From Rhizobiales bacterium UBA3584 (GTDB lineage: Bacteria > Pseudomonadota > Alphaproteobacteria > Rhizobiales > Devosiaceae), in contig DFMV01000049.1 of assembly GCA_002375765.1 (NCBI GenBank), forward strand, positions 1-46,944: 46,944 nt of DNA. The letters are read 5' to 3'. This document shows, one piece after another, positions 1,358 through 46,944 of this stretch. Both the position numbers and the translations under genes were made by a program. The notes under the pieces are model-generated. The model had not been told where the DNA came from. It made no database searches and saw only the letters and a program-made list of their open reading frames with translations. Numbering within the stretch: the first letter of the stretch is position 1; each line of letters starts with the position of its first letter.

Positions 1358-2122
1358 ATGACCGACAACGCTCAAACCACCCATTTCGGAACGCGCACCG
1401 TCCCGCTGGGCGAAAAGCAGGGCCTGGTCAACGATGTCTTCCATAAGGTGGCCTCGCGCTACGATCTGATGAACGATCTGATGAGCGGTGGAATCCATAG
1501 AGTTTGGAAGGACCTGATGGTCGCCCGCCTCGCCCCGCCCCGCTCCGGGTCGCGCGATTACAGAGTGCTCGACATGGCCGGCGGCACCGGCGACGTCGCC
1601 ATGCGCATCCTCAATGCCAGCCATGGTTATGCCAGGGTCACGGTCTCCGACATCAATGCCGACATGCTCGCCGTCGGCGCCGAACGCGCCAAGTCCTGGC
1701 GCTATCCGGCCAATGTCGATTTCGTTGAGGCCAATGCCGAAGAATTGCCGTTTGAAAACAACAGTTTCGATGCCTACACCATCGCCTTCGGCATCCGCAA
1801 CGTACCCCGCATCGACAAGGCGTTGAGCGAAGCGCACAGGGTTCTCAAACGCGGCGGCCGCATTCTGGTGCTCGAATTTTCCAAAGTCGATGTGCCGGTA
1901 CTCGACAAGATCTACGATCTCTTTTCCGATCACCTCATTCCGCCCATGGGCAAGATGGTGACCGGCGATGCCCAGCCCTATCAGTACCTCGTTGAATCCA
2001 TTCGCAACTTCCCCGATCCGACCACATTCTCGACCATGATCGAAACCGCCGGCTTCAAGCGCGTTACCCACACCGCGCTTTCCGGCAATATCGCCGCTCT
2101 TCACGGGGGCTGGAAACTCTGA
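1358..2122 (+). CDS. ubiE: Ubiquinone/menaquinone biosynthesis C-methyltransferase UbiE
   Basis: SAM-dependent C-methyltransferase acting on the benzoquinol ring in ubiquinone synthesis. The 254-residue protein has the family N-terminus ([17 protein letters not shown], residues 24-40), the SAM-binding motif LDMAGGTGD (71-79), and the later motif IAFGIRNV. The ATG follows a GAGGCGCGAG ribosome-binding site. ubiB starts two bases after the stop, so the two are almost certainly co-transcribed, followed by coaBC. Confidence 0.96.
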
Positions 2123-2124
2123 CC

Positions 2125-3672
2125 ATGGGGCTTGGGACCTATCTAAGGCTCGCACGGGCCGGCTTTGTTCTGGCCCGCGAGGGCGCGCTCTCGCTCGCCG
2201 AGGGCCACCCCATTCCGCCGTCCGCCAAGCTGCTGGTCGGCATTGGCCGACTGATCGAAAAGCGCGATGTGCGCAAGACCGGTCGCGTCACGCGGCTGGC
2301 CAACGCCCTGACCCGGCTCGGCCCGGTCTATGTCAAGCTTGGCCAGGTTCTCGCCACCCGGCGCGACATCGTCGGGTTTGAAATCGCTTCCGATCTCGCC
2401 GCTCTACAGGACGCGCTGCCCCCGTTCGATGAAAAGCTCGTCCCCGGCCTCCTCGCCGAAGCGCTGGGCGAAAAGGCCGCAGCGCTCAAGGACATTTCCC
2501 CGCCCCTCGCCGCCGCCTCGATCGCCCAGGTCCACAAGGCCCGGCTCCAAACGCCGCAGGGCGAGCGCTTCGTCGCCGTCAAGCTCCTGCGCCCCAAAAT
2601 CCGCGAGCGTTTTGCCCGCGATCTCGATGGGCTTTATGCCCTGGCCGGGGTTGCCGAGCGGTTCATGCCCGCCACGCGGCGCTTCAATGGCAAGAAGGTC
2701 GTCGATGCGCTGGCTCGCTCGGCCATGCTCGAGATGGATCTGCGCATGGAAGCGGCCGCCATGTCCGAGCTTGCCGACAATCTGGGCGATGACGGCGATT
2801 TTCGGGTCCCCGATGTATTCTGGGAACAGACCGGGCGCTCGGTCCTCACCACCGGCTGGATCGACGCCATCCCCATCCGCGAGGTCGAAAAGATCGAAGC
2901 GGCGGGCATGGACCGCAAAAAGCTTGCCGCGGGCCTGATCCAGAGCTTTTTGCGCCAGGCCATCCGCGACGGATTTTTTCACGCCGACATGCACCCGGGC
3001 AATCTGTTTGCCGACCCGAAAACCGGCGGCATCGTCGCCGTCGATTTCGGCATCATGGGTCGGATCGGCAAGCGTGAGCAGCGCTTCCTTGCCGAAATCC
3101 TCTATGGCTTCATCACCCGCGATTATTACCGCGTGGCCGAACTGCACCTCGATATCGGCTATGTGCCGCAAACCCACACCATCGACGATTTCGCCCAGGC
3201 CATCCGGGCCATCGGCGAACCGCTGGTCGGGCGCGGCGCCGATGAGATTTCCATGGCGCGGGTTCTGGCCCAGCTGATCGAGGTGACCGAGCTGTTCGAC
3301 ATGACCGCCCGGCCCGAACTGGTTCTGCTGCAAAAAAACATGGTGCTGGCCGAAGGCACCGCCCGCCTGCTCGATCCGCAATTCAACATGTGGACCGCCG
3401 CCGAACCGGTGGTTGGCGAATGGGTGCGCCGCGCGGTCGGGCCCCAGGGCAAGCTCGAAATCGCCAAAGAGCCCATCGACGAGGCGCTCGACCTGGCCAG
3501 GCGGCTCCCTGATCTGGGCCGCCGCGCCGAGCGCGTTCTGACCCGGCTCGAAGCCGACCAGATGCGTCAGGACAAAACGGACCCGTTGATCGAAACCCTC
3601 AAATGGGGGAGCCTTGCAACAATCGTTCTGGCGATCATCAGTCTGATCGCCCATCTGGGAGGCGCGCTGTGA
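2125..3672 (+). CDS. ubiB: UbiB/ADCK-family atypical kinase for ubiquinone synthesis
   Basis: A membrane-associated ABC1/ADCK protein-kinase-like ATPase required for ubiquinone biosynthesis. It shows the family KxGQ motif (KLGQ, residues 71-74), the catalytic-loop segment HADMHPGNLF and the metal-binding VDFGIMGRIG, and ends in a hydrophobic helix (ATIVLAIISLIAHLGG) that anchors it to the membrane. Length 515 is typical. It is sandwiched between ubiE (2 bp gap) and coaBC (4 bp overlap), consistent with one operon. Confidence 0.95.
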   Translation: MGLGTYLRLARAGFVLAREGALSLAEGHPIPPSAKLLVGIGRLIEKRDVRKTGRVTRLANALTRLGPVYVKLGQVLATRRDIVGFEIASDLAALQDALPPFDEKLVPGLLAEALGEKAAALKDISPPLAAASIAQVHKARLQTPQGERFVAVKLLRPKIRERFARDLDGLYALAGVAERFMPATRRFNGKKVVDALARSAMLEMDLRMEAAAMSELADNLGDDGDFRVPDVFWEQTGRSVLTTGWIDAIPIREVEKIEAAGMDRKKLAAGLIQSFLRQAIRDGFFHADMHPGNLFADPKTGGIVAVDFGIMGRIGKREQRFLAEILYGFITRDYYRVAELHLDIGYVPQTHTIDDFAQAIRAIGEPLVGRGADEISMARVLAQLIEVTELFDMTARPELVLLQKNMVLAEGTARLLDPQFNMWTAAEPVVGEWVRRAVGPQGKLEIAKEPIDEALDLARRLPDLGRRAERVLTRLEADQMRQDKTDPLIETLKWGSLATIVLAIISLIAHLGGAL

Positions 3673-4892
3673 GTGTTGCCGGCAAGCACATCCTCTTGAT
3701 CATTTCGGGCGGCATAGCCGCCTACAAGGCCATCACGCTGATCCGTCTGATCCAGAAAGCGGGCGGAACGGTGCAGGTGATTTTGACACAAGGGGCAAAA
3801 CAGTTTGTTTCTCCCCTGACCATTTCAACGCTGTGCGGCCGCCCGGCCCTGTCCGACCTTTTCGATCTGACCCGCGAGGCCGAGATCGGCCATATAGAGC
3901 TTTCCCGCTCGGCCGATCTGGTCGTTGTCGCGCCGGCTACTGCCAACATCCTGGCGCGCATGGCCAACGGGCTGGCCGACGATCTGGCCACCACCTGCCT
4001 TCTGGCCACCATCACTCCGGTGCTCGCCGCTCCGGCCATGAATGTGCGCATGTGGGAAGCGCCCTCAACCCGGCGCAACATCGAAACGCTGCGCCGCGAT
4101 GGCATAGCCTTTGTCGGCCCCGAAGAGGGTGATATGGCCTGCGGCGAATTCGGCGCGGGCCGCATGGCCGAACCCGAAGATATTCTCGCCGCCATCACCG
4201 ATCACTTCTCCCATGGACCCGGACCGCGACCTCTGGAGGGCAAGACGGTCATCGTCACCTCCGGGCCCACCCGCGAGCCGATCGATCCGGTGCGCTACAT
4301 CTCCAACGCGTCCTCGGGCCGCCAGGGCACCGCCATTGCCGAAGCGCTCGCGTCACAGGGTGCTATCGTCAAATTCGTCACTGGCCCGGCCGAATATTCA
4401 AAGCCCAAAGGCTGCGAAATCATCCCGGTTGAAACCGCCGTCGAAATGGAAGCGGCAGTCACCGCCGCGCTGCCCGCCGATGCGGCGATCTTTACCGCAG
4501 CCGTTGCCGACTGGCGCGTTGCCGAGCCCGCCGACGCCAAGCTGAAAAAGGATGGGTCGGGTGCTGCGCCTGAACTCGATTTTGTCGCCAACCCCGATAT
4601 CCTCGCTTCGGTCTCCCACCTCCCTGCGGGCGAACGCCCCAATCTGGTCATTGGCTTTGCCGCCGAAACGGGAAACCTTGAAACCCACGCCCGAAACAAA
4701 CTGGCGCGCAAGGGCTGCGATTGGCTTCTCGCCAATGATGTAAGCCCGGGAACCGGCGTTTTCGGCGGCGCCGACACCCGCATTCTGTTTCTCGATGGCA
4801 CCGGCACCGATGATTGGGGTCCGCAATCGAAAGCCGCCGTGGCCGAGAAACTTGCGGACCGGATCGCGAAACATTTTGCCGGCGGCAACTGA
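3669..4892 (+). CDS. coaBC: Bifunctional phosphopantothenoylcysteine decarboxylase / phosphopantothenate-cysteine ligase
   Basis: Catalyses two consecutive steps of coenzyme A synthesis. The N-terminal flavoprotein half has SGGIAAYK and the PAMNVRMW substrate-recognition clamp; the C-terminal ligase half has TSGPTREPIDPVRYISN. The GTG at 3669 overlaps the ubiB stop in a GTGA arrangement and places the flavoprotein start correctly; an in-frame ATG 66 bases upstream would give an unrelated Arg-rich extension inside ubiB. The resulting 407 residues match the family. Confidence 0.95.
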   Translation: MSVAGKHILLIISGGIAAYKAITLIRLIQKAGGTVQVILTQGAKQFVSPLTISTLCGRPALSDLFDLTREAEIGHIELSRSADLVVVAPATANILARMANGLADDLATTCLLATITPVLAAPAMNVRMWEAPSTRRNIETLRRDGIAFVGPEEGDMACGEFGAGRMAEPEDILAAITDHFSHGPGPRPLEGKTVIVTSGPTREPIDPVRYISNASSGRQGTAIAEALASQGAIVKFVTGPAEYSKPKGCEIIPVETAVEMEAAVTAALPADAAIFTAAVADWRVAEPADAKLKKDGSGAAPELDFVANPDILASVSHLPAGERPNLVIGFAAETGNLETHARNKLARKGCDWLLANDVSPGTGVFGGADTRILFLDGTGTDDWGPQSKAAVAEKLADRIAKHFAGGN

Positions 4893-4897
4893 GCCCG

Positions 4898-4952
4898 GAG
4901 TGCTTCCAGAATAAATGGACACCACTTATTCGGTTCGGAAGCGCGACAAACC
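4898..4952. repeat. Palindromic intergenic repeat, family A copy 1
   Basis: An imperfect palindrome whose outer arms are tgcttcc and ggaagcgcg and whose inner part reads aataaatgg...ccacttatt. It shares its order of motifs (gcgtttcc-aga-aa-tgg ... tattcggttcggaagcgcgac) with copies at 6107, 11212, 29719 and 31032. It lies directly downstream of the coaBC stop. Such REP-like elements occur in many rhizobial genomes. Confidence 0.75.
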
Positions 4953-5064
4953 GAAGAGCAAGAGAATTTTTGCGATTCGAAGAAGCGCAGAAATGCTCTG
5001 GCGTCTTGCAAAATCTGCTTGTTTCCGACCACAGTGCGCCAAACTGTTGAGGAAGGGATACCCG

Positions 5065-5658
5065 ATGACCATGACCACGATGACCCGTCTGGCCGGCGCC
5101 AGCGGCCTGGCCCTGCTGCTTACCGCATGCATGGACGTTTCGATGACTGTCGACGTGCAAAGCGAAACCGAGGCCGAGGCCACCATGGTCACCTCCATGG
5201 CCGCCGACATGGTCGAGATGATGAATGCCCAGGCCGAGGGTGGTGACGACGAATTCTGCGCCGAAGGCGAACTGATCGAAAATGGTGACATGATCGATTG
5301 CATCGTCGTTGAATCGGGTCCCTTTGACGAGCTCGAGTTCGATGCTGAAGAAGGAGAAGGCCCGGTGATCGAAGCCATTGGCGGCGGTCAGGTGCGCGTC
5401 ACCTTCCCCACCGGCGATCTCGCCGCCTCGCTTGATGAAAGCATGGGCGAGGAACAGGACCCCCAGATGCAGGCGATGATCAGCTCGATGTTTGAGGGCC
5501 ACGCCATCACCCTTGCGGTCGCCGGCGGCACCATCGTGGACACCAACATGGAAATTTCGGCCGATGGCATGTCGGCAAGCTATGAAATTCCCTTTGTCGA
5601 TCTGTTCGCCGCGACCCTCGATATGCCCGAGGAAATCTACGCGGTCGTCCAGAAATAG
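5065..5658 (+). CDS. Predicted outer-membrane or periplasmic lipoprotein of unknown function
   Basis: The ATG at 5065 follows a GAGGAAGGG ribosome-binding site and gives a clean lipoprotein signal peptide (TRLAGASGLALLLTACMD): the LTAC lipobox predicts lipidation of the Cys. The mature protein, about 180 residues, is strongly acidic and Met-rich, with a VSMTVDVQSE strand after the lipobox and an acidic FDAEEGEG stretch mid-protein. I do not recognise a named family with confidence. The frame is open further upstream to 4915, but that extension is translated repeat sequence. dut follows after 3 bases. Confidence 0.8.
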   Translation: MTMTTMTRLAGASGLALLLTACMDVSMTVDVQSETEAEATMVTSMAADMVEMMNAQAEGGDDEFCAEGELIENGDMIDCIVVESGPFDELEFDAEEGEGPVIEAIGGGQVRVTFPTGDLAASLDESMGEEQDPQMQAMISSMFEGHAITLAVAGGTIVDTNMEISADGMSASYEIPFVDLFAATLDMPEEIYAVVQK

Positions 5659-5661
5659 GCC

Positions 5662-6108
5662 ATGACAGTCAGGTTCAAATGGCTTGAGCATGGGCGGGGC
5701 CTGCCCCTGCCCATGCGCCAGAGCACGGCGGCATCGGGCTATGATCTTGCAGCCGCGGTGGCCCAGGACGAGACCCTTGTCATTGCCCCCGGCGCCTTTG
5801 CGCTGGTGCCCTGCGGTTTCGCGCTGGCCCTGCCGGTCGGTTACGAGGCCCAGATCCGGCCGCGCTCTGGTCTTGCCGCCCGGCTCGGTGTTACCGTGCT
5901 CAATGCGCCCGGTACGGTCGACGCCGATTACCGCGGGGAGGTCAAGGCCATCCTCGTCAATCATGGCCCTGATCCGTTCGATATACGGCGTGGCGACAGG
6001 ATCGCCCAGATGGTGATTGCCGCCGTGCCCGATATCGCGCTTTTGGAAGTGGACGAACTCGAGGAGACCGAACGTGGCACTGGTGGATTTGGCTCGACGG
6101 GGACCTAG
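5662..6108 (+). CDS. dut: Deoxyuridine 5'-triphosphate nucleotidohydrolase (dUTPase)
   Basis: Hydrolyses dUTP to dUMP, keeping uracil out of DNA and feeding dTMP synthesis. All five trimeric-dUTPase motifs are present in order: ASGYDL (1), PRSGLAA (2), [11 protein letters not shown] (3), RGDRIAQMV (4) and [10 protein letters not shown] (5). Length 148 is normal. In rhizobia dut is commonly found just downstream of coaBC, as here, with a lipoprotein gene interposed. A palindromic repeat begins at the stop codon. Confidence 0.96.
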
Positions 6109-6183
6109 AGCGTTTCCAGAAAAAGCATGTCCTCGACCCCGATCGGGGATGCGAACCGCTTTTTCGGTTCGGAAGCGCGACCA
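6107..6183. repeat. Palindromic intergenic repeat, family A copy 2
   Basis: Outer arms are agcgtttcc and ggaagcgcg; this copy is longer than the others because of an internal hairpin (tcctcgaccccgatcgggga). It starts within the dut stop codon and runs into the start of the next coding sequence, so the ATG at 6149 and the residues FSVRKRD of the next protein are encoded by the repeat. The same residues appear in the open frame through copy 1, showing the shared sequence. Confidence 0.75.
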
Positions 6184-6898
6184 CCTTAAATGGCTTGGCC
6201 TTGCCCTCGCTTTCGCAGCGGCCGTACCCGCTTTCGCTGGTGACAGCGCCCAGTTCGATGCCATCGGCTATTCCCAAGACGGGCGATACTTCGCCTTCGA
6301 GCAGTTCGGCATTCAGGATGGCTCGGGCTTTGCTTATGCGGAAATTTTCCTGATCGATCTTTCCATCGACAGTTTCGTGGGCGGCGCGCCGTTCGATGTC
6401 CGTATCGATACCGAAATGGCCCCGGTCGCCGACGCCCGCGCCCAGGCGCATGCGGAGGCGGCAAAGGCCCTTGCCGAATTCGGCATCTCCCGTCCCGCTG
6501 TTCCCCTGGCCCTGCGCGGCGACGGCGAGTTGGGCGATGATGGGCTGTCGATTTCTTACGGCATTCCCAGCTATGGCCTTGCCGAAATCTCGGGCGAATA
6601 CACGCTGAACCTCGAAATCTTCAAGGCGCCATCATCCCAGGATTGCGAATTCTTCGAAGGCACCCCGATGGGCGTCGCGGTGATGCGGCAGGCCGACGGC
6701 ATCACCCAAGAGATTTATCGCGACACAAGCGTGCCCGCTTCACGCCACTGCGTCATCACCTATAAATTCTACGGAATCTTCAACCCGTTCGACTCCTGGG
6801 ACAATGCATCTTCCGTTGCCGTGCTTTCCGTCTGGTCGCACGGGTTCGAAGGGCCTGACCGGCGCTTCATCGCGTTGCCGGTTGGGGATGTTCAATAA
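6149..6898 (+). CDS. Predicted secreted protein, DUF2259 family
   Basis: The protein has a positively charged N-terminus (VRKRDHLKW), a hydrophobic core (LGLALAFAAAVPAFA) and a likely signal-peptidase site after AFA, so it is exported. The mature part begins with the FDAIGYSQDGRYFAFEQFG segment that I associate with DUF2259 secreted proteins; its function is unknown. The first in-frame ATG with a usable signal peptide lies inside a palindromic repeat and its ribosome-binding site is weak, so the start is uncertain. The 3' end overlaps the next gene by 11 bases, implying coupling. Confidence 0.75.
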   Translation: MRTAFSVRKRDHLKWLGLALAFAAAVPAFAGDSAQFDAIGYSQDGRYFAFEQFGIQDGSGFAYAEIFLIDLSIDSFVGGAPFDVRIDTEMAPVADARAQAHAEAAKALAEFGISRPAVPLALRGDGELGDDGLSISYGIPSYGLAEISGEYTLNLEIFKAPSSQDCEFFEGTPMGVAVMRQADGITQEIYRDTSVPASRHCVITYKFYGIFNPFDSWDNASSVAVLSVWSHGFEGPDRRFIALPVGDVQ

Positions 6899-42503: not shown

Positions 42504-44207
42504 ATGGCTAACCAGACCGCATCTGCAGAAGATTTCGAACAGCTCCTTTTTGAGAGCTTTCAGGACATCGATCCCGTCGAGGGCACCGTTGTCAAAGGCA
42601 AGGTCGTCGCAATCGAAAAAGACCTCGCCATCATCGACGTGGGATTGAAGACCGAAGGCCGCGTGCCGATGAAGGAATTCGGCGCCGCCGGCCGCGACGG
42701 CACCATTGCCGTCGGCTCGGAAGTCGAAGTCTATGTCGACCGCGTCGAAAACGCGATGGGCGAGGCTGTCCTCTCCCGTGAGAAGGCCCGCCGCGAAGAA
42801 AGCTGGGTCCGCCTCGAAGTCCTTTACGACAAGGGCGAAAAGGTCGAAGGCCAGATCTTCAACCAGGTCAAGGGCGGCTTCACCGTCGATCTCGATGGCG
42901 CCGTGGCCTTCCTGCCGCGCTCCCAGGTCGATATCCGCCCCATCCGCGACATCGCTCCCCTGATGAACGTGCCGCAGCCCTTCCAGATCCTGAAAATGGA
43001 CAAGCGCCGCGGCAATATCGTCGTTTCGCGCCGCGCCATTCTCGAAGAATCGCGCGCCGAACAGCGTTCGGAAATCGTCCAACAGCTCGAAGAGGGCCAG
43101 GTGGTCGAAGGCGTCGTCAAGAACATCACCGATTACGGTGCGTTCGTTGATCTGGGCGGCATCGATGGCCTGCTCCACGTCACCGACATCGCATGGCGCC
43201 GCGTCAATCACCCCAACGAAGTCCTGGCGATCGGCGAGACCATCAAGGTCCAGATCATCCGCGTCAATCAGGAAAGCCATCGTATTTCGCTGGGCATGAA
43301 GCAGCTCCAGGCCGATCCCTGGGAAGGCATTGCCGCCAAGTATCCGGTGGAAGCCAAGTTCACTGGCCGCGTGACCAACATCACCGATTACGGTGCGTTC
43401 GTCGAACTCGAGCCGGGCATCGAAGGCCTGATCCACGTCTCGGAAATGAGCTGGACCAAAAAGAACGTCCATCCGGGCAAGATCGTCTCGACCTCCCAGG
43501 AAGTCGAAGTGGTCGTTCTCGAAGTCGATCCCGAAAAGCGCCGCATCTCGCTTGGTCTCAAGCAGACGCTCGCCAATCCGTGGGAAAGCTTTGCCGACAA
43601 GTTCCCGATCGGTGCCGAGATCGAAGGCGAAGTCAAGAACAAGACCGAATTCGGCCTGTTCATCGGCCTCGACGGCGATGTGGACGGCATGGTCCACCTT
43701 TCCGATCTCGACTGGAACCGTCCGGGCGAAGAAGCGCTTGAGGATTACAACCGTGGCGACATCGTCAAGGCCAAGGTTCTCGACGTCGATATCGACAAGG
43801 AACGCATTTCCCTGGGCATCAAGCAGCTTGGGTCCGATGCAATGGCCGATGCCGCTGCCGGCTCCGATGGCCTGCGCAAGGGCGCGATCGTCACCACCGA
43901 AGTCACCGCCGTTACCGATGGTGGCCTCGAAGTGCGCATCGCCGACACCGACCTGACGGCCTTCATCCGCCGCTCCGATCTGAGCCGCGACCGTGAAGAC
44001 CAGCGCCCCGAACGCTTCGCCGTCGGCGAAAAGGTCGATGCCCGCATCACCCAGTTCGACAAGAAGACCCGCCGCATCGGCCTTTCGATCAAGGCCCTGG
44101 AAATCGCCGAAGAAAAAGAAGCCGTCGCTCAGTACGGTTCCTCCGACTCCGGCGCCTCCCTCGGCGACATCCTTGGCGCAGCCCTCAAGGGCCAGGACAA
44201 GAAGTAA
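42504..44207 (+). CDS. rpsA: 30S ribosomal protein S1
   Basis: Binds mRNA and helps initiation on weak ribosome-binding sites. Six S1 repeats are visible, several with the GxVxNITDYGAFVxL motif (NITDYGAFVDLGGIDGLLH and NITDYGAFVELEPGIEGLIH). The ATG at 42504 with a GGAG upstream gives 567 residues; a longer frame (42384) is not needed. The 218-base leader after cmk contains the palindrome CCCCATATGGGG. Confidence 0.96.
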   Translation: MANQTASAEDFEQLLFESFQDIDPVEGTVVKGKVVAIEKDLAIIDVGLKTEGRVPMKEFGAAGRDGTIAVGSEVEVYVDRVENAMGEAVLSREKARREESWVRLEVLYDKGEKVEGQIFNQVKGGFTVDLDGAVAFLPRSQVDIRPIRDIAPLMNVPQPFQILKMDKRRGNIVVSRRAILEESRAEQRSEIVQQLEEGQVVEGVVKNITDYGAFVDLGGIDGLLHVTDIAWRRVNHPNEVLAIGETIKVQIIRVNQESHRISLGMKQLQADPWEGIAAKYPVEAKFTGRVTNITDYGAFVELEPGIEGLIHVSEMSWTKKNVHPGKIVSTSQEVEVVVLEVDPEKRRISLGLKQTLANPWESFADKFPIGAEIEGEVKNKTEFGLFIGLDGDVDGMVHLSDLDWNRPGEEALEDYNRGDIVKAKVLDVDIDKERISLGIKQLGSDAMADAAAGSDGLRKGAIVTTEVTAVTDGGLEVRIADTDLTAFIRRSDLSRDREDQRPERFAVGEKVDARITQFDKKTRRIGLSIKALEIAEEKEAVAQYGSSDSGASLGDILGAALKGQDKK

Positions 44208-44233
44208 CACACATAGTGTGATCGATTTTATGG

Positions 44234-44263
44234 GGCTCGCGCGAAAGCGCGGGCCTTTTTCTT
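44234..44263 (+). terminator. Intrinsic terminator after rpsA
   Basis: A 9-bp stem (GGCTCGCGC/GCGCGGGCC with one T-G pair) capped by a GAAA tetraloop, followed by five T residues and CTTT. 26 bases after the rpsA stop. Confidence 0.9.
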
Positions 44264-44375
44264 TGGGAATGGTGGTAAGATCGGGCACTATGGAATAAAC
44301 TTAAAATGGACTATTCCACGCCATACGCTTAGCGAGCCAACCTGTTATGGGAACTCTCTCGCAGGCTTATCGAGA

Positions 44376-44487
44376 TGGCGCAGCGGCAGGATTCGAACCT
44401 GCGACCTCCCTGTCCGGTGATGGCGTCCGGCAAGACCACATCGAACCGTCGAAAACAGGGTGCTCTGTCCACCTGAGCTACGCTGCG
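44376..44487 (-). tRNA. tRNA-like gene with a hairpin insert in the anticodon loop (non-functional or novel)
   Basis: Acceptor CGCAGCG pairs perfectly with CGCTGCG; D arm GCTC-AGGTGGACA-GAGC has G18 G19; variable loop AGGTC; T arm GCAGG-TTCGAAT-CCTGC is canonical. The anticodon stem CCCTG/CAGGG pairs, but 43 bases lie between its strands where 7 are expected. The extra 36 or so fold as a hairpin (CGGT-GATG...CATC-ACCG). With it excised, the loop TTTTCGA would have anticodon TTC. The 3' end reads CGCTGCG followed by CCA. Its 5' end is 5 bases after the XRE gene stop, so it may be co-transcribed. Confidence 0.6.
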
Positions 44488-44492
44488 GAACT

Positions 44493-45239
44493 TTAGAAAG
44501 GAATATCCTCCAAACCATTCGGTTCGAAAGCTGGAGCTTTCGAGGGTACGTAGAGATCATCGACCTTGAGCGTGATCCGGTCACTGCGAGCAATCGGCGC
44601 CAGCATGATCCGGCAGATTGTGACCAGTTCGCGAGGCGTCCGGCTGGTTACATACATTTCGCCAGTATCGATATCGTAATATGGCATCTGAGCCTTTGCC
44701 GTGTATGTTGCGACAAAGGCGGCAATGCCAAAGTCCAATAATTGCTTAATCTGCTGATTCAGACTGACGGCTTGACGAAGCCTTGCCGACAGCGGAAACA
44801 CCGGCTCTTCCATTGGCGTCCGCCAAGGATTCGGCATCATGGCTTCGATCGCGGAAGTCATCGCCTCAAGCACATCAATGTTTTCGGAAGTCGGCTCCGC
44901 CTCGCACGTTATCTTGCCGTCAAAGCTGGCTTCCAGCGTATTGATGAGAGTCATCCCAGAATCAACTGGCCGTAGAACAATTAAACTCTGGGCTGCCAAG
45001 TCCTCTGCATTGGTGCCGTCCTCATTTTCAGCAGTTCTGATAATTTCACTAACACGTACATTAAGTGCCGATGCGATGCTGGATAGACTTTCCATTTGCA
45101 TCGGCTTGTCGGTTTCTGCGCGCTGAATCGTCCGCCGATCTACGCCACTTTTAATACCCAGTATTTCTTGGGTCATGCCCGCTAACCCCCGCAATTCGCG
45201 GATCTTTGCTCCATCTGGTCTGTGATTTCGATTGCTCAT
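44493..45239 (-). CDS. XRE-family HTH regulator of unknown target, paralogue 1
   Basis: N-terminal helix-turn-helix: KIRELRGLAGMTQEILGIKSGVDRRTIQRAETDKPMQMESLSSIASAL is the lambda-repressor-type pattern. The C-terminal about 170 residues are unrecognised, with a hydrophobic segment (LLDFGIAAFVATYTAKA). The base composition is AT-richer than its neighbours. The ATG at 45237-45239 is taken; a TTG nine bases upstream is possible. Likely of foreign origin, together with the next gene. Confidence 0.75.
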   Translation of the reverse strand: MSNRNHRPDGAKIRELRGLAGMTQEILGIKSGVDRRTIQRAETDKPMQMESLSSIASALNVRVSEIIRTAENEDGTNAEDLAAQSLIVLRPVDSGMTLINTLEASFDGKITCEAEPTSENIDVLEAMTSAIEAMMPNPWRTPMEEPVFPLSARLRQAVSLNQQIKQLLDFGIAAFVATYTAKAQMPYYDIDTGEMYVTSRTPRELVTICRIMLAPIARSDRITLKVDDLYVPSKAPAFEPNGLEDIPF

Positions 45240-45361
45240 GAGTTTCAATCTAGCGCGAATGGAGCGACAGTACCACGTCAGGAAAGCGGCAGGATTTCAG
45301 ACGATGCGCTATCGTTGCGACGCGAGCGCGACACTAATGTCTTAGAACACGACAAGCTGGA

Positions 45362-46057
45362 TTAAAATCCGAAGCTGTCGTTACGCGGAACTCTAACAAT
45401 TTGGGGAAGGGCATCTAGGGAGGCCGAAACGACATAGACAATATCGAGGAAAAAGCTGGCATCGCTCGATTGAGAACTCTTCAGTCGCATCCTAGCTCGG
45501 CGACACCCCGCAACAATGCCAATACCCTGCATTCTCAATTCATCGATCTGCTCCTGGAATTGACGATCCACTTCAAGCTTGTCTCTCGCTGAATAGAGAT
45601 CATGGCAGTCGCCGTATTCGCAAAAGCAATCTTGAAGAGACGCGAGCAACGCTTCGACATTGTCCGTCGGATCATCAATTGATGTGATGAGAAAGCTGTG
45701 GGCGCGTTCGGCGAGCTTACGCAATTGTTTCCCCTTCACCATCTGCTGCACGTCCACAGCGACAGTTTCGCGTTCAATACGCGCGGATTCTTCCTTTAGC
45801 CTTTCAATATTGGGTAAGGGCCAAGGCCCGTTAAATGTATCAAGGTCATCAAAATCAAAAGCGGCCGCTAATGTTCGACGTGTATCAATACTGCTAGGTT
45901 GGCCGCTCTCGAGCCGCTGTATGGTGCGCGGACTGACGCGAGCAATTTCAGCGAGCGTTTCCTGTGTCCAACCCTTTTCTTTTCGAAGCTCCGCAATGAC
46001 AGCAGCAAGCTCTGGATCGGTAAGGCGGCGATAGTCGATCACGTCTGAATTAATCAT
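45362..46057 (-). CDS. XRE-family HTH regulator of unknown target, paralogue 2
   Basis: A 231-residue protein with the same plan: KEKGWTQETLAEIARVSPRTIQRLESGQPSSIDTRRTLAAAF is the HTH, then a charged helical linker and an unrecognised domain with several Cys (CFCEYGDC) and SSDASFFLDIVYVVSASL. GGGAG precedes the ATG. AT-rich like paralogue 1; they are tandem, 122 bases apart. Confidence 0.75.
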   Translation of the reverse strand: MINSDVIDYRRLTDPELAAVIAELRKEKGWTQETLAEIARVSPRTIQRLESGQPSSIDTRRTLAAAFDFDDLDTFNGPWPLPNIERLKEESARIERETVAVDVQQMVKGKQLRKLAERAHSFLITSIDDPTDNVEALLASLQDCFCEYGDCHDLYSARDKLEVDRQFQEQIDELRMQGIGIVAGCRRARMRLKSSQSSDASFFLDIVYVVSASLDALPQIVRVPRNDSFGF

Positions 46058-46151
46058 TAGATGCTCCCATTTATGGAACAGATCATCGCAACAATAGGAG
46101 CGTCTTACCACGACAGGAACCCGACAGCGCCGAAGGGTGTTAGCGCTACTG

Positions 46152-46944
46152 CTAACTAGAGCCCATCCCCTTCAACACCCCCGCCGTCTCCGGCATCCGC
46201 TTCAAACTCGCCCCGATCCGCTCGCGCCAGCGCGGGCCGCGCGCCAGCGCGTCTTTATAGGCTTCGGCGAGATCGTCGGGCCGGTCCTGCGCCAGCACCG
46301 CCACCAGAAACGCCGCCTGGGCCCGGTCCTTGCGCGCCTTGATCTGGTCCGGCCCGCCCTGGCGCCGGTCGGCCACGATCAGCTTGTGAATCGCAAAGCG
46401 TTCCGGCCGCGGAACCTGCACCAGAACCCCCGAGCGATAGAGCGCAACCGCTTGGACCGGCTCGGCAAGCAGGAAGTTGAGATAATTAAGCCCCTGCGCG
46501 CTCACCCCCAAGGCGGGTAGCGGCTTGACGCCTTCCTCGCCAAGCGCCGGCGTCAAAAATTCCACCATGACTTCGCCGTGGCTTTGCCGCCATCGCCACA
46601 CCTGTTTGTTGTTGATCCCCGGCACGGGATCGAATTTAAGCACATTGAGAATGTCGGCGGGGCTTTCTTCAACCTTGTCGTCCAACGCCACCGAAAGCCG
46701 CTCGATACTGGCAATATCGATATCGCCGGTCTGCGCCAGCTCCTCGGCATCCATGCGCACCCCGAGTTCGCCCTGATAGAGCCCATAGGCTGAAGTGCCC
46801 ACCAGCGTTCCCCCCAGCCGGAACACCCCCGCCCTTGAAAAGGCGAGCAGCAGCGAGCCGGTCTCCCGGTCGGTCGTCAAAAGCCCTTCGGCCCGCAGCG
46901 TCCGCGCCAGTTGGCTCATCCGCTGCCGGCGCCCCTCCGATTGC
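46152..46944 (-). CDS. GSU2403-like nucleotidyltransferase-fold protein, N-terminus outside window
   Basis: A nucleotidyltransferase-fold protein: GGTLVGTSAYGLYQGELGV and TGDIDIA resemble the G[GS]-D-x-D core of the fold, and a C-terminal helical domain follows (KLIVADRRQGGPDQIKARKDRAQAAFLV). The frame is open to the window edge with no stop, and family members start further upstream, so I treat it as partial; an ATG at 46917-46919 could be an internal Met. Function unknown. Confidence 0.75.
   Translation of the reverse strand, partial: QSEGRRQRMSQLARTLRAEGLLTTDRETGSLLLAFSRAGVFRLGGTLVGTSAYGLYQGELGVRMDAEELAQTGDIDIASIERLSVALDDKVEESPADILNVLKFDPVPGINNKQVWRWRQSHGEVMVEFLTPALGEEGVKPLPALGVSAQGLNYLNFLLAEPVQAVALYRSGVLVQVPRPERFAIHKLIVADRRQGGPDQIKARKDRAQAAFLVAVLAQDRPDDLAEAYKDALARGPRWRERIGASLKRMPETAGVLKGMGSS

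What the first reader, a model, noticed from the sequence alone, without database searches (positions are those of the whole stretch)
44376..44487. tRNA with a 36-base hairpin inserted in the anticodon loop
Acceptor, D, anticodon, variable and T elements are all canonical and the tertiary-contact bases (G18 G19, TTCGA in the T loop) are intact, yet the anticodon loop is 43 bases long and contains a 12-bp interrupted hairpin. Bacterial tRNA introns known to me are group I or II and far longer. It may be a tRNA pseudogene frozen by an integration event, a tRNA-like regulatory RNA, or an unusual split anticodon tRNA. It is next to AT-rich XRE genes, possibly foreign DNA.
Basis: partly seen in the sequence, partly recalled or inferred. 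Interest (0 to 1): 0.7.

Follow-up and report, generated by a model that had tools for sequence, protein, structure and literature searches.

The report
Plasmid-type tRNA-like RNA, extra hairpin
A gene that looks like a tRNA, but has an extra hairpin built into its anticodon arm, belongs to a rare and conserved family of tRNA-shaped RNAs found on plasmids and other mobile DNA beside small DNA-binding-protein genes, so it is probably a working non-coding RNA and not a broken tRNA.

Summary
It is not a one-off. A blastn of plasmids found full-length relatives; pattern and covariance-model scans found more. In 17 aligned copies (15 loci besides the window) 19 of 27 pairs show two-sided changes, including 4 of 4 in the extra helix. 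Rfam knows only generic tRNA here. A decaying pseudogene is thus unlikely. An intron-bearing tRNA is not excluded: no splice register gives one anticodon for all, but the best gives UUC (Glu) in 9 of 17, with U33 in 13. In 8 of 11 loci found through the RNA, it starts -2 to 12 nt after the stop codon of an HTH_36-type gene; here a 251-aa XRE gene ends 5 nt upstream. The insert (1.9 kb, AT-rich, behind rpsA) is missing in 10 of 12 genus genomes examined. Most likely it is a tRNA-derived non-coding RNA co-transcribed with its HTH gene; its role is inferred only. It is rare: 4 of 385 class genomes including its own.

The parts
44376..44487 (-). tRNA-like RNA, 112 nt as read (CCA included)
   Evidence: Rfam RF00005 49.9 bits; held-out family model R2 74.3 bits against at most 60.5 for the own-genome tRNA loci tested
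44481..44487 (-). acceptor stem, 5' strand CGCAGCG (pairs with 44379-44385)
   Evidence: 7 of 7 pairs; 6 of 7 pairs with two-sided changes in the family
44462..44478 (-). D arm, with GGA (A20) in the loop
   Evidence: GGA in 17 of 17 family rows; among the 38 own-genome tRNA sequences listed only the four intact tRNA-Arg D loops read GGAT
44408..44460 (-). extended anticodon arm: 7-bp stem (44454-44460 with 44408-44414), 5-nt bulge UUCGA (44449-44453, tRNA positions 34-38 if the stem pairs 32 and 33 too), interrupted 12-bp hairpin (44415-44448)
   Evidence: covariation of the extra helix 4 of 4 pairs
44386..44402 (-). T arm (GCAGG UUCGAAU CCUGC)
44376..44378 (-). CCA directly after position 72 (no normal discriminator)
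   Evidence: sequence; NCCA is exact in 11 of 17 family rows, not in this one
44493..45248 (-). XRE-type HTH gene (251 aa) whose stop codon lies 5 nt before the RNA
   Evidence: ORF; HTH_3 E 1.7e-5; 41.8% identical relative on Methylosinus plasmid pMSC49d, one gene upstream of that plasmid's HTH_36-RNA pair
45362..46111 (-). second XRE-type HTH gene (249 aa), part of the same insert
   Evidence: HTH_3 E 3.2e-10; similar to the first only in the HTH part
44268..46162 (.). species-specific AT-rich stretch (RNA plus two XRE genes) between the rpsA terminator and the NTP_transf_8 gene
   Evidence: homology to relatives G008/G009 ends at about 44261-44268 and resumes at about 46163; GC 0.513
44232..44257 (+). 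rpsA terminator-like hairpin, edge of the conserved backbone

Best explanation
The feature is a member of a small family of tRNA-derived RNAs carried by plasmids and chromosomes of Proteobacteria and by some viral contigs, and most likely it does not decode. Shown: a cloverleaf with intact elbow and acceptor stem; an anticodon stem lengthened to about 7 bp and continued by a 5-nt bulge (UUCUA or UUCGA in 8 of 17) and a covarying extra helix; in most loci a start within a few nucleotides of the stop codon of an HTH gene on the same strand. The bulge lies where positions 34-38 of a tRNA would be, so an anticodon-like triplet (UUC in 9 of 17) stays exposed beside a closed arm. Inferred: the HTH gene and the RNA are one transcript, RNase P cuts just behind the stop codon, and the freed RNA keeps a tRNA-like end. 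Most likely role (inference, about 0.3): the RNA is the regulated product or RNA partner of the HTH protein in a small accessory cassette of the defence or toxin-antitoxin type. The same HTH family is followed elsewhere by PemK/MazF or PD-T4-5/AbiD-like genes, and the RNA itself by AbiTii or a restriction enzyme in two loci. The window copy sits beside an XRE-type HTH gene, so the partner can change.
For: Relatives: blastn of the window RNA against plasmids gave 2 records with 80% or more coverage, Xanthobacter NZ_CP063366 and Caulobacter NZ_CP033873. More came from Methylosinus, class scan G776 and G732, phylum scan G991, G531, G285, Methylocaldum and Spongiibacter, Bradyrhizobium (no Rfam hit, R1 65.1 bits, the weakest copy), Methylobacter with two tandem copies, viral contigs L486, L489, L475=L498. 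Structure: on the MAFFT alignment of 8, 95.8% of cells paired and 15 of 27 pairs with two-sided changes, 0 of 500 shuffles as high, and RNAalifold finds the fold unaided; on the model-fitted alignment of 17, 97.1% and 19 of 27. Window membership: a model built without it scores it 74.3 bits, best own-genome tRNA tested 60.5. HTH link: of 11 loci found through the RNA with R1 above 70 bits (L475=L498 once, window excluded) an HTH_36-type gene ends -2 to 12 nt upstream in 8: L408, L409, L413, L434, L435, L486, L489, L499 (L408, L409 and L413 helped to build the profile). tRNA-like end: exact NCCA in 11 of 17 rows. Context: AbiTii 50 nt after the RNA in L409, mREase_II after it in L425; PD-T4-5/AbiD-like or PemK/MazF genes after the HTH gene in L416, L417, L429 and L420, L424.
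Against: No expression data: transcription, RNase P cutting and function are untested. The 5' loop letters YUUUCKA look like an ordinary Glu(UUC) anticodon loop in 9 of 17 copies and U33 is kept in 13, which an RNA without any decoding past or role would not need; this weakens 'non-decoding'. The protein next to the window RNA is XRE type, not HTH_36, and its gene was found in only 1 of 297 order genomes, so that pairing could not be tested elsewhere. 3 of the 11 RNA-found loci (L414, L433, L475) have no HTH_36-type gene directly upstream by the profile. Only 5 of 17 fetched HTH_36 records (of 312 matched) have such an RNA. On the 11-copy MAFFT alignment A4 the automatic consensus lost the extra helix. 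In one search one measure, further pair types, is reached by 4 of 500 shuffles. Alignment A6 was fitted to the structure. The window copy lacks the discriminator plus CCA spacing, and the scan shows no terminator-like hairpin on its strand between it and the rpsA 3' end except a 5-bp one inside that end.
Confidence: 0.62

Rival explanations
1. A decoding tRNA with a short intron in the anticodon loop, at or near the canonical 37/38 site, removed by an unknown splicing route. For the window copy this gives Glu(UUC); other cut sites give Arg(CCG) or Arg(UCG).
For: With stems aligned over 17 copies, cutting after loop base 5, 6 or 7 gives UUC in 9 of 17 and U33 in 13 of 17; ARAGORN calls Glu(ttc) with an intron for the window, L409 and L418; phage tRNAs with unexplained introns are reported (PMC6784885, passages).
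Against: No register gives one isotype: 6 or 7 isotypes in 17; the body is not Glu-like (D stem GCUC/GAGC against the own tRNA-Glu genes); the arm is one continuous helix with a bulge on one side only, no bulge-helix-bulge (by eye); no intron family in Rfam; the genome already has Glu ttc, ctc and Arg acg, ccg, cct, tct.
Confidence: 0.2
2. A tRNA pseudogene or attachment-site remnant frozen by insertion of mobile DNA.
For: It lies in a mobile-looking AT-rich insert; the discriminator is missing; the genome has other tRNAs for the candidate codons.
Against: All 21 canonical stem pairs and 2 extending ones intact, compensatory changes across independent loci, same architecture on separate plasmids, held-out model match, no integrase among the ORFs of the insert (by eye).
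Confidence: 0.06
3. A 3'-UTR device: the tRNA-like fold serves only to define and protect the 3' end of the HTH mRNA by RNase P cutting, and the freed RNA has no role of its own. (Overlaps with the best explanation in structure; differs in function.)
For: Stop-to-RNA gaps of -2 to 12 nt (and annotated ends); terminator-like hairpins just behind the RNA in L418 and L419.
Against: The extra helix and bulge are conserved although RNase P does not need them (established knowledge of RNase P substrates); tandem copies in L499 and L422; NCCA end kept in 11 of 17.
Confidence: 0.2
4. A decoy that shields the host or plasmid from tRNA-cutting or tRNA-binding enzymes (defence or counter-defence RNA), offering an anticodon-like UUC in a bulge.
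For: tRNA body intact and an exposed UUC in 9 of 17; neighbours include AbiTii and mREase_II, and HTH relatives are followed by PD-T4-5/AbiD-like and PemK/MazF genes; the relative G008 has AbiTii at the same spot behind rpsA.
Against: No target known; neighbours vary and the next gene is on the opposite strand in L418, L419, L423.
Confidence: 0.2

Closest known systems
Canonical bacterial tRNA (Rfam RF00005)
   Same: Cloverleaf, T loop, D loop G18G19, acceptor stem, often an encoded NCCA end; Arg-like A20; a Glu-like UUC triplet in many copies
   Different: No 7-nt anticodon loop; anticodon stem continued by bulge and extra helix; no constant anticodon
tmRNA (SsrA)
   Same: tRNA-like domain whose anticodon-side helix is extended into another structure
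   Different: Here the D stem is complete, pair 3-70 is C-G or U-A and not G-U, and ARAGORN reports no tmRNA in the window
Bacterial tRNAs with self-splicing group I introns
   Same: Interruption in the anticodon loop
   Different: Those introns are mostly over 200 nt (PMC8450103, passages); here 36 nt with no ribozyme family in Rfam
Archaeal and eukaryotic tRNA introns (bulge-helix-bulge)
   Same: Short insert near the canonical 37/38 position folding into the arm
   Different: One-sided bulge, no single anticodon over the family, bacterial hosts
Phage tRNAs with unexplained introns (Lak megaphages, PMC6784885, passages)
   Same: Short inserts in tRNA genes of mobile DNA
   Different: The phage-type inserts seen here lie inside the 5' strand of the anticodon stem and have another motif; whether they are the same as the Lak introns was not tested
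MALAT1 mascRNA and viral tRNA-like structures (recalled, from no call)
   Same: Non-decoding tRNA-like RNA at the 3' end of a message; mascRNA is freed by RNase P
   Different: Eukaryotic or viral, different anticodon-side structure

Membership tests
Decoding tRNA | cloverleaf fold above the RF00005 gathering score | tested here: met
   49.9 bits, threshold 29
Decoding tRNA | 7-nt anticodon loop in the gene as read | tested here: not met
   43-nt loop
Decoding tRNA with intron | one isotype-consistent anticodon with U33 over the family after removal of the insert | tested here: inconclusive
   best register UUC in 9 of 17, U33 in 13 of 17, 6 isotypes
Decoding tRNA | discriminator base followed by CCA | tested here: not met
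   not in the window (CCA right after position 72); met in 11 of 17 family rows
tRNA with group I or II intron | ribozyme core recognised by Rfam | tested here: not met
   only RF00005 matches the RNA at gathering scores; no intron family at E up to 1 in 44200-44600
tRNA with BHB intron | bulge-helix-bulge at the exon borders | tested here: not met
   one-sided 5-nt bulge in a continuous helix, by eye
tmRNA | G3-U70 pair and tmRNA call by ARAGORN | tested here: not met
   no tmRNA call in the window; pair 3-70 is CG in 15 and UA in 2 of 17
tRNA pseudogene | loss of pairing or conserved bases | tested here: not met
   all stems intact, compensatory changes
tRNA-like RNA family described here | match to a covariance model built without the window copy, above the own-genome tRNAs tested | tested here: met
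   74.3 bits against at most 60.5; R2 itself lost the extra helix in its consensus
tRNA-like RNA family described here | extended anticodon stem, 5-nt bulge, extra helix | tested here: met
HTH_36-RNA cassette | HTH_36-type gene ending within about 12 nt upstream | tested here: not met
   the window has an XRE-type HTH gene 5 nt upstream instead; no HTH_36 profile hit
Stable processed RNA | expression and RNase P cutting | not testable with these tools
   no RNA data held

The most novel reading that the evidence does not exclude
A mobile two-part system in which a DNA-binding protein controls a tRNA-shaped effector RNA: the RNA enters the tRNA pathway by its acceptor end and elbow, and its extended arm, with an anticodon-like UUC bulged out beside a closed helix, acts on translation, on a tRNA enzyme, or on a phage or plasmid competitor. 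It would be a new kind of RNA effector or RNA antitoxin, parallel to the PemK/MazF and Abi-type genes that follow the same HTH family elsewhere.
Probability: 0.25. Interest if true: 0.88.

Novelty: new variant of a known kind. Interest (0 to 1): 0.7.

Why it matters
Odd tRNA genes tend to be set aside as pseudogenes or undetermined tRNAs. A conserved, covarying tRNA-like family in HTH-led plasmid cassettes would be a new class of accessory RNA in bacteria (or, if spliced, a new kind of short bacterial tRNA intron), and gives a concrete small system (about 0.6 kb, one protein, one RNA) in which to ask what a tRNA-shaped RNA can do other than decode. [quoted passage not shown]

Tried and rejected
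Intron reading: a first test over 15 copies had placed the stem of L409, L414 and L425 one base off and made the registers look more scattered (6 to 8 isotypes, U33 in at most 9). Repeated on the aligned columns of 17 copies it shows UUC in 9 of 17 and U33 in 13 of 17 for the best registers. I therefore keep the intron as a rival at 0.2 and lowered my own reading to 0.62. Pseudogene: rejected on covariation. Ordinary type II tRNA: rejected, variable loop 5 nt. tmRNA: no call. A missing-isotype role: not needed, see the tRNAs (44 Rfam hits in the own genome). Wider testing of the XRE-RNA pairing: 1 of 297 order genomes has the XRE gene, the own one. First order-wide pattern scan matched 11 of 397 genomes; only the window's own match is this RNA, the other 10 look like neighbouring tRNAs or chance by eye and were not examined further; that pattern required GGTTCGANTCC and would miss most relatives, which read GGTTCAAGTCC. 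A stricter viral-contig pattern found 0. HTH protein in phage records: 1 partial hit. Rfam on the spacer between HTH gene and Abi-like gene in L417 and L429: no match. Literature searches for a description of this RNA (listings seen): none found; subscription papers and preprints are not held.

Full report
1. Observation. The sequence at 44376-44487 reads on the minus strand as a tRNA cloverleaf with a long insert in the anticodon loop. Rfam finds RF00005 at 49.9 bits against a gathering score of 29. ARAGORN finds two ordinary tRNAs in the window and not this one; with introns allowed it reports tRNA-Glu(ttc) with a 36-nt intron. The acceptor, D, anticodon and T stems are fully paired. Energy alone would not convince: 11 of 200 shuffles fold at least as well.

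2. The locus. A second genome of the same species (G061, one contig) carries the identical stretch, 4215 identical bases. In the genus sample the end of rpsA was found with a strong match in 12 of 13 genomes; the RNA is behind it in 2 (own species) and ARAGORN finds no tRNA in the roughly 1.5-kb flanks of the other 10. In 10 longer stretches (G061 and 9 relatives) the only other tRNA is an ordinary tRNA-Gly in G002, about 3.9 kb behind rpsA. Homology with G008 and G009 ends at the rpsA terminator (about 44261-44268) and resumes at about 46163, so a 1.9-kb stretch with the RNA and two XRE-type genes is specific to this species. Its GC is 0.513 against 0.623 in 1-44267. G008 has other genes in this spot, one of them AbiTii, so it looks like a landing place for small accessory islands (inference). 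The genome has Arg acg, ccg, cct, tct and Glu ttc, ctc genes besides this one.

3. Relatives. In 61 genomes near the window only the own genome has a full-length match. In plasmids, blastn gave two records with 80% or more of the query: Xanthobacter dioxanivorans NZ_CP063366 and Caulobacter sp. FWC26 NZ_CP033873. Both have an HTH gene ending 10 and 12 nt upstream on the same strand. A tblastn with the window's XRE protein led to Methylosinus plasmid pMSC49d, where a relative of that XRE gene lies one gene upstream of an HTH gene and a third RNA, 6 nt apart. In the gene tables of L408, L409, L410, L418, L423 and L425 one locus-tag step is skipped between the HTH gene and the next CDS, and two in L499, which has two RNA copies; this suggests RNA genes in the original annotation (inference; these tables carry no RNA genes or pseudogenes). 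In L419 none is skipped.

4. Counts. A pattern with the Arg-like D loop matched 3 of 385 genomes of the class, the own included. A covariance model R1 built from 8 copies gives 98.9-114.8 bits for its members and at most 62.6 for the ordinary own-genome tRNA loci tested. In 385 genomes of the class 4, the own included, match at E 2e-15 or better. In IMG/VR a pattern gave 37 loci, of which L486, L489 and the identical pair L475/L498 exceed 70 bits; the rest I did not count as members. Methylobacter plasmid NZ_CP091425 has two copies in tandem. Bradyrhizobium L425 is the weakest copy kept (65.1 bits, no Rfam hit). A more distant kind with two hairpins in the arm follows the HTH gene in Burkholderia cenocepacia (two copies) and Paraburkholderia ginsengisoli; R1 scores it only 42-51 bits, so I keep it apart.

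5. Structure evidence. On the sequence alignment of 8 copies 95.8% of the cells pair and 15 of 27 pairs have two-sided changes; no shuffle of 500 reaches these two values, while one other measure (further pair types) is reached by 4 of 500. Shuffles do not correct for kinship; sliding the partners by 1-3 columns, which does, drops pairing to 38-57%. RNAalifold predicts the same fold from that alignment alone, but on the 11-copy MAFFT alignment without the window it lost the extra helix. On 17 copies aligned to the model the values are 97.1% and 19 of 27, with 4 of 4 pairs of the extra helix changing on both sides somewhere; this alignment leans towards the model. The bulge reads UUCUA or UUCGA in 8 of 17. 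All 17 have GGA in the D loop, which among 38 own-genome tRNA sequences only intact tRNA-Arg genes show as GGAT, so an origin from tRNA-Arg is plausible (inference). An exact NCCA follows position 72 in 11 of 17; the window copy is one of the six exceptions. The model built without the window copy (R2) ranks it first, 74.3 bits against at most 60.5.

6. Decoding or not. If the RNA were spliced to a 7-nt loop, some register should give one anticodon in all copies. On aligned columns of 17 copies no register does: 6 or 7 isotypes each. But the best registers, near the canonical 37/38 site, give UUC (Glu) in 9 of 17, with Asp, Ala, Leu, Thr and a stop-type triplet in the rest, and U33 in 13 of 17. 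My first version of this test had three stems one base off and overstated the scatter. In the folded RNA the triplet sits in the 5-nt bulge (positions 34-38). The body is unlike the own tRNA-Glu genes in the D stem. Known bacterial tRNA introns in the literature seen are group I, mostly over 200 nt (PMC8450103, passages). I judge 'does not decode' more likely, but not settled.

7. The HTH partner. Proteins upstream in L408, L409, L410, L418, L419, L423 and L425 match Pfam HTH_36, and six of the seven reach the DnaD_N cut-off. Taking only loci found through the RNA (11, with L475=L498 once and the window left out), 8 have such a gene ending -2 to 12 nt upstream; L414, L433 and L475 do not by the profile test. 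L408, L409 and L413 were among the sequences that built the profile; L489 holds only the end of its gene. L414 has, by eye, an ORF tail resembling the end of such a protein. In the other direction, of 312 plasmid records matched by the HTH protein (60 listed) I fetched 17, and 5 have an RNA: L418, L419, L425 and, of the two-hairpin kind, L422 and L423. In the other 12 the next same-strand gene is PemK/MazF in L420 and L424, PD-T4-5/AbiD-like in L416, L417 and L429, uncharacterised in L415, L426, L427, L428 and L431, and none is listed in L421 and L430. After the RNA comes AbiTii in L409 and a type II methyl-directed restriction enzyme in L425. The window copy has an XRE gene 5 nt upstream instead.

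8. Mechanism. Shown: conserved fold, tight position behind an HTH stop codon in most loci, mobile context. Inferred: one transcript, RNase P cutting at +1, 3' end at CCA where encoded. Terminator-like hairpins follow the RNA in L418 and L419; behind the window copy the scan shows only a 5-bp one at the rpsA 3' end on that strand. With only a few nucleotides between stop codon and RNA, a terminating ribosome would cover the start of the acceptor stem, so translation and RNA folding may compete (inference). Role: an HTH-controlled RNA of a defence or toxin-antitoxin type cassette is my first choice at about 0.3; a pure mRNA-end device, a decoy and a spliced tRNA are the main rivals.

9. Novelty. 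No Rfam family other than generic tRNA matches the RNA copies at gathering scores and eight literature searches found no description in their listings. I call it a new variant of a known kind (tRNA-like non-coding RNA), with a bolder reading kept in the novel case.

Noticed in passing
L110, L130, L135, L136, L142, L146, L155, L187 (IMG/VR) and L235, L244, L250, L255, L305 (Lachnospiraceae by record title or genus): tRNA genes with a 42-49-nt insert inside the 5' strand of the anticodon stem (about between positions 28 and 29); taking it out restores an arm with U33. The insert has a hairpin followed by C-N-GCAA. L233, L239 and L299 look like tandem-tRNA artefacts. Possibly a tiny intron class, perhaps related to the 'enigmatic' phage tRNA introns of PMC6784885 (not tested).
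   Followed up: partly
L463, L465, L467, L478, L483, L490, L493, L495: A nearly identical 129-nt tRNA-like gene with a long insert in eight viral contigs, unlike the window family in its insert and with no HTH_36 profile hit upstream (some flanks are short).
   Followed up: no
L422:5433-5559, L422:5614-5741, L423:5436-5564: A Burkholderia/Paraburkholderia kind of HTH-linked tRNA-like RNA with two hairpins in the arm, one with GCGGA in its loop; two copies in tandem in L422.
   Followed up: partly
L416, L417, L429, between HTH gene and Abi-like gene: A GC-rich inverted repeat (CCCCGG-type) by eye between HTH and PD-T4-5/AbiD-like genes in three plasmids; no Rfam match in L417 and L429. It reminds me, by recall only, of the abiF-associated RNA.
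   Followed up: partly
L291, L297, L308, L312, L328, L230 (Bacteroidota): tRNA-like genes whose inserts share GTCAA ... ACTTC letters, by eye.
   Followed up: no
L119, L134, L138, L140 (viral contigs): tRNA-like genes with inserts sharing GGTRAAGGACC-like letters, by eye.
   Followed up: no
G000 contig C38:20166-20234 (L353): A partial second copy of tRNA-Arg(ccg) with an intact 3' half and a degenerate 5' half, as left by an element integrated at a tRNA gene.
   Followed up: no
L094:2228-2941, and L095 turned to the reverse strand, 1434-6825: The spot behind rpsA holds other accessory genes in close relatives, AbiTii in G008 and several unrelated ORFs in G009.
   Followed up: partly
L410, L413, L425, L435: The distal loop of the extra arm reads GACAA in these four family members, a possible binding motif.
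   Followed up: no
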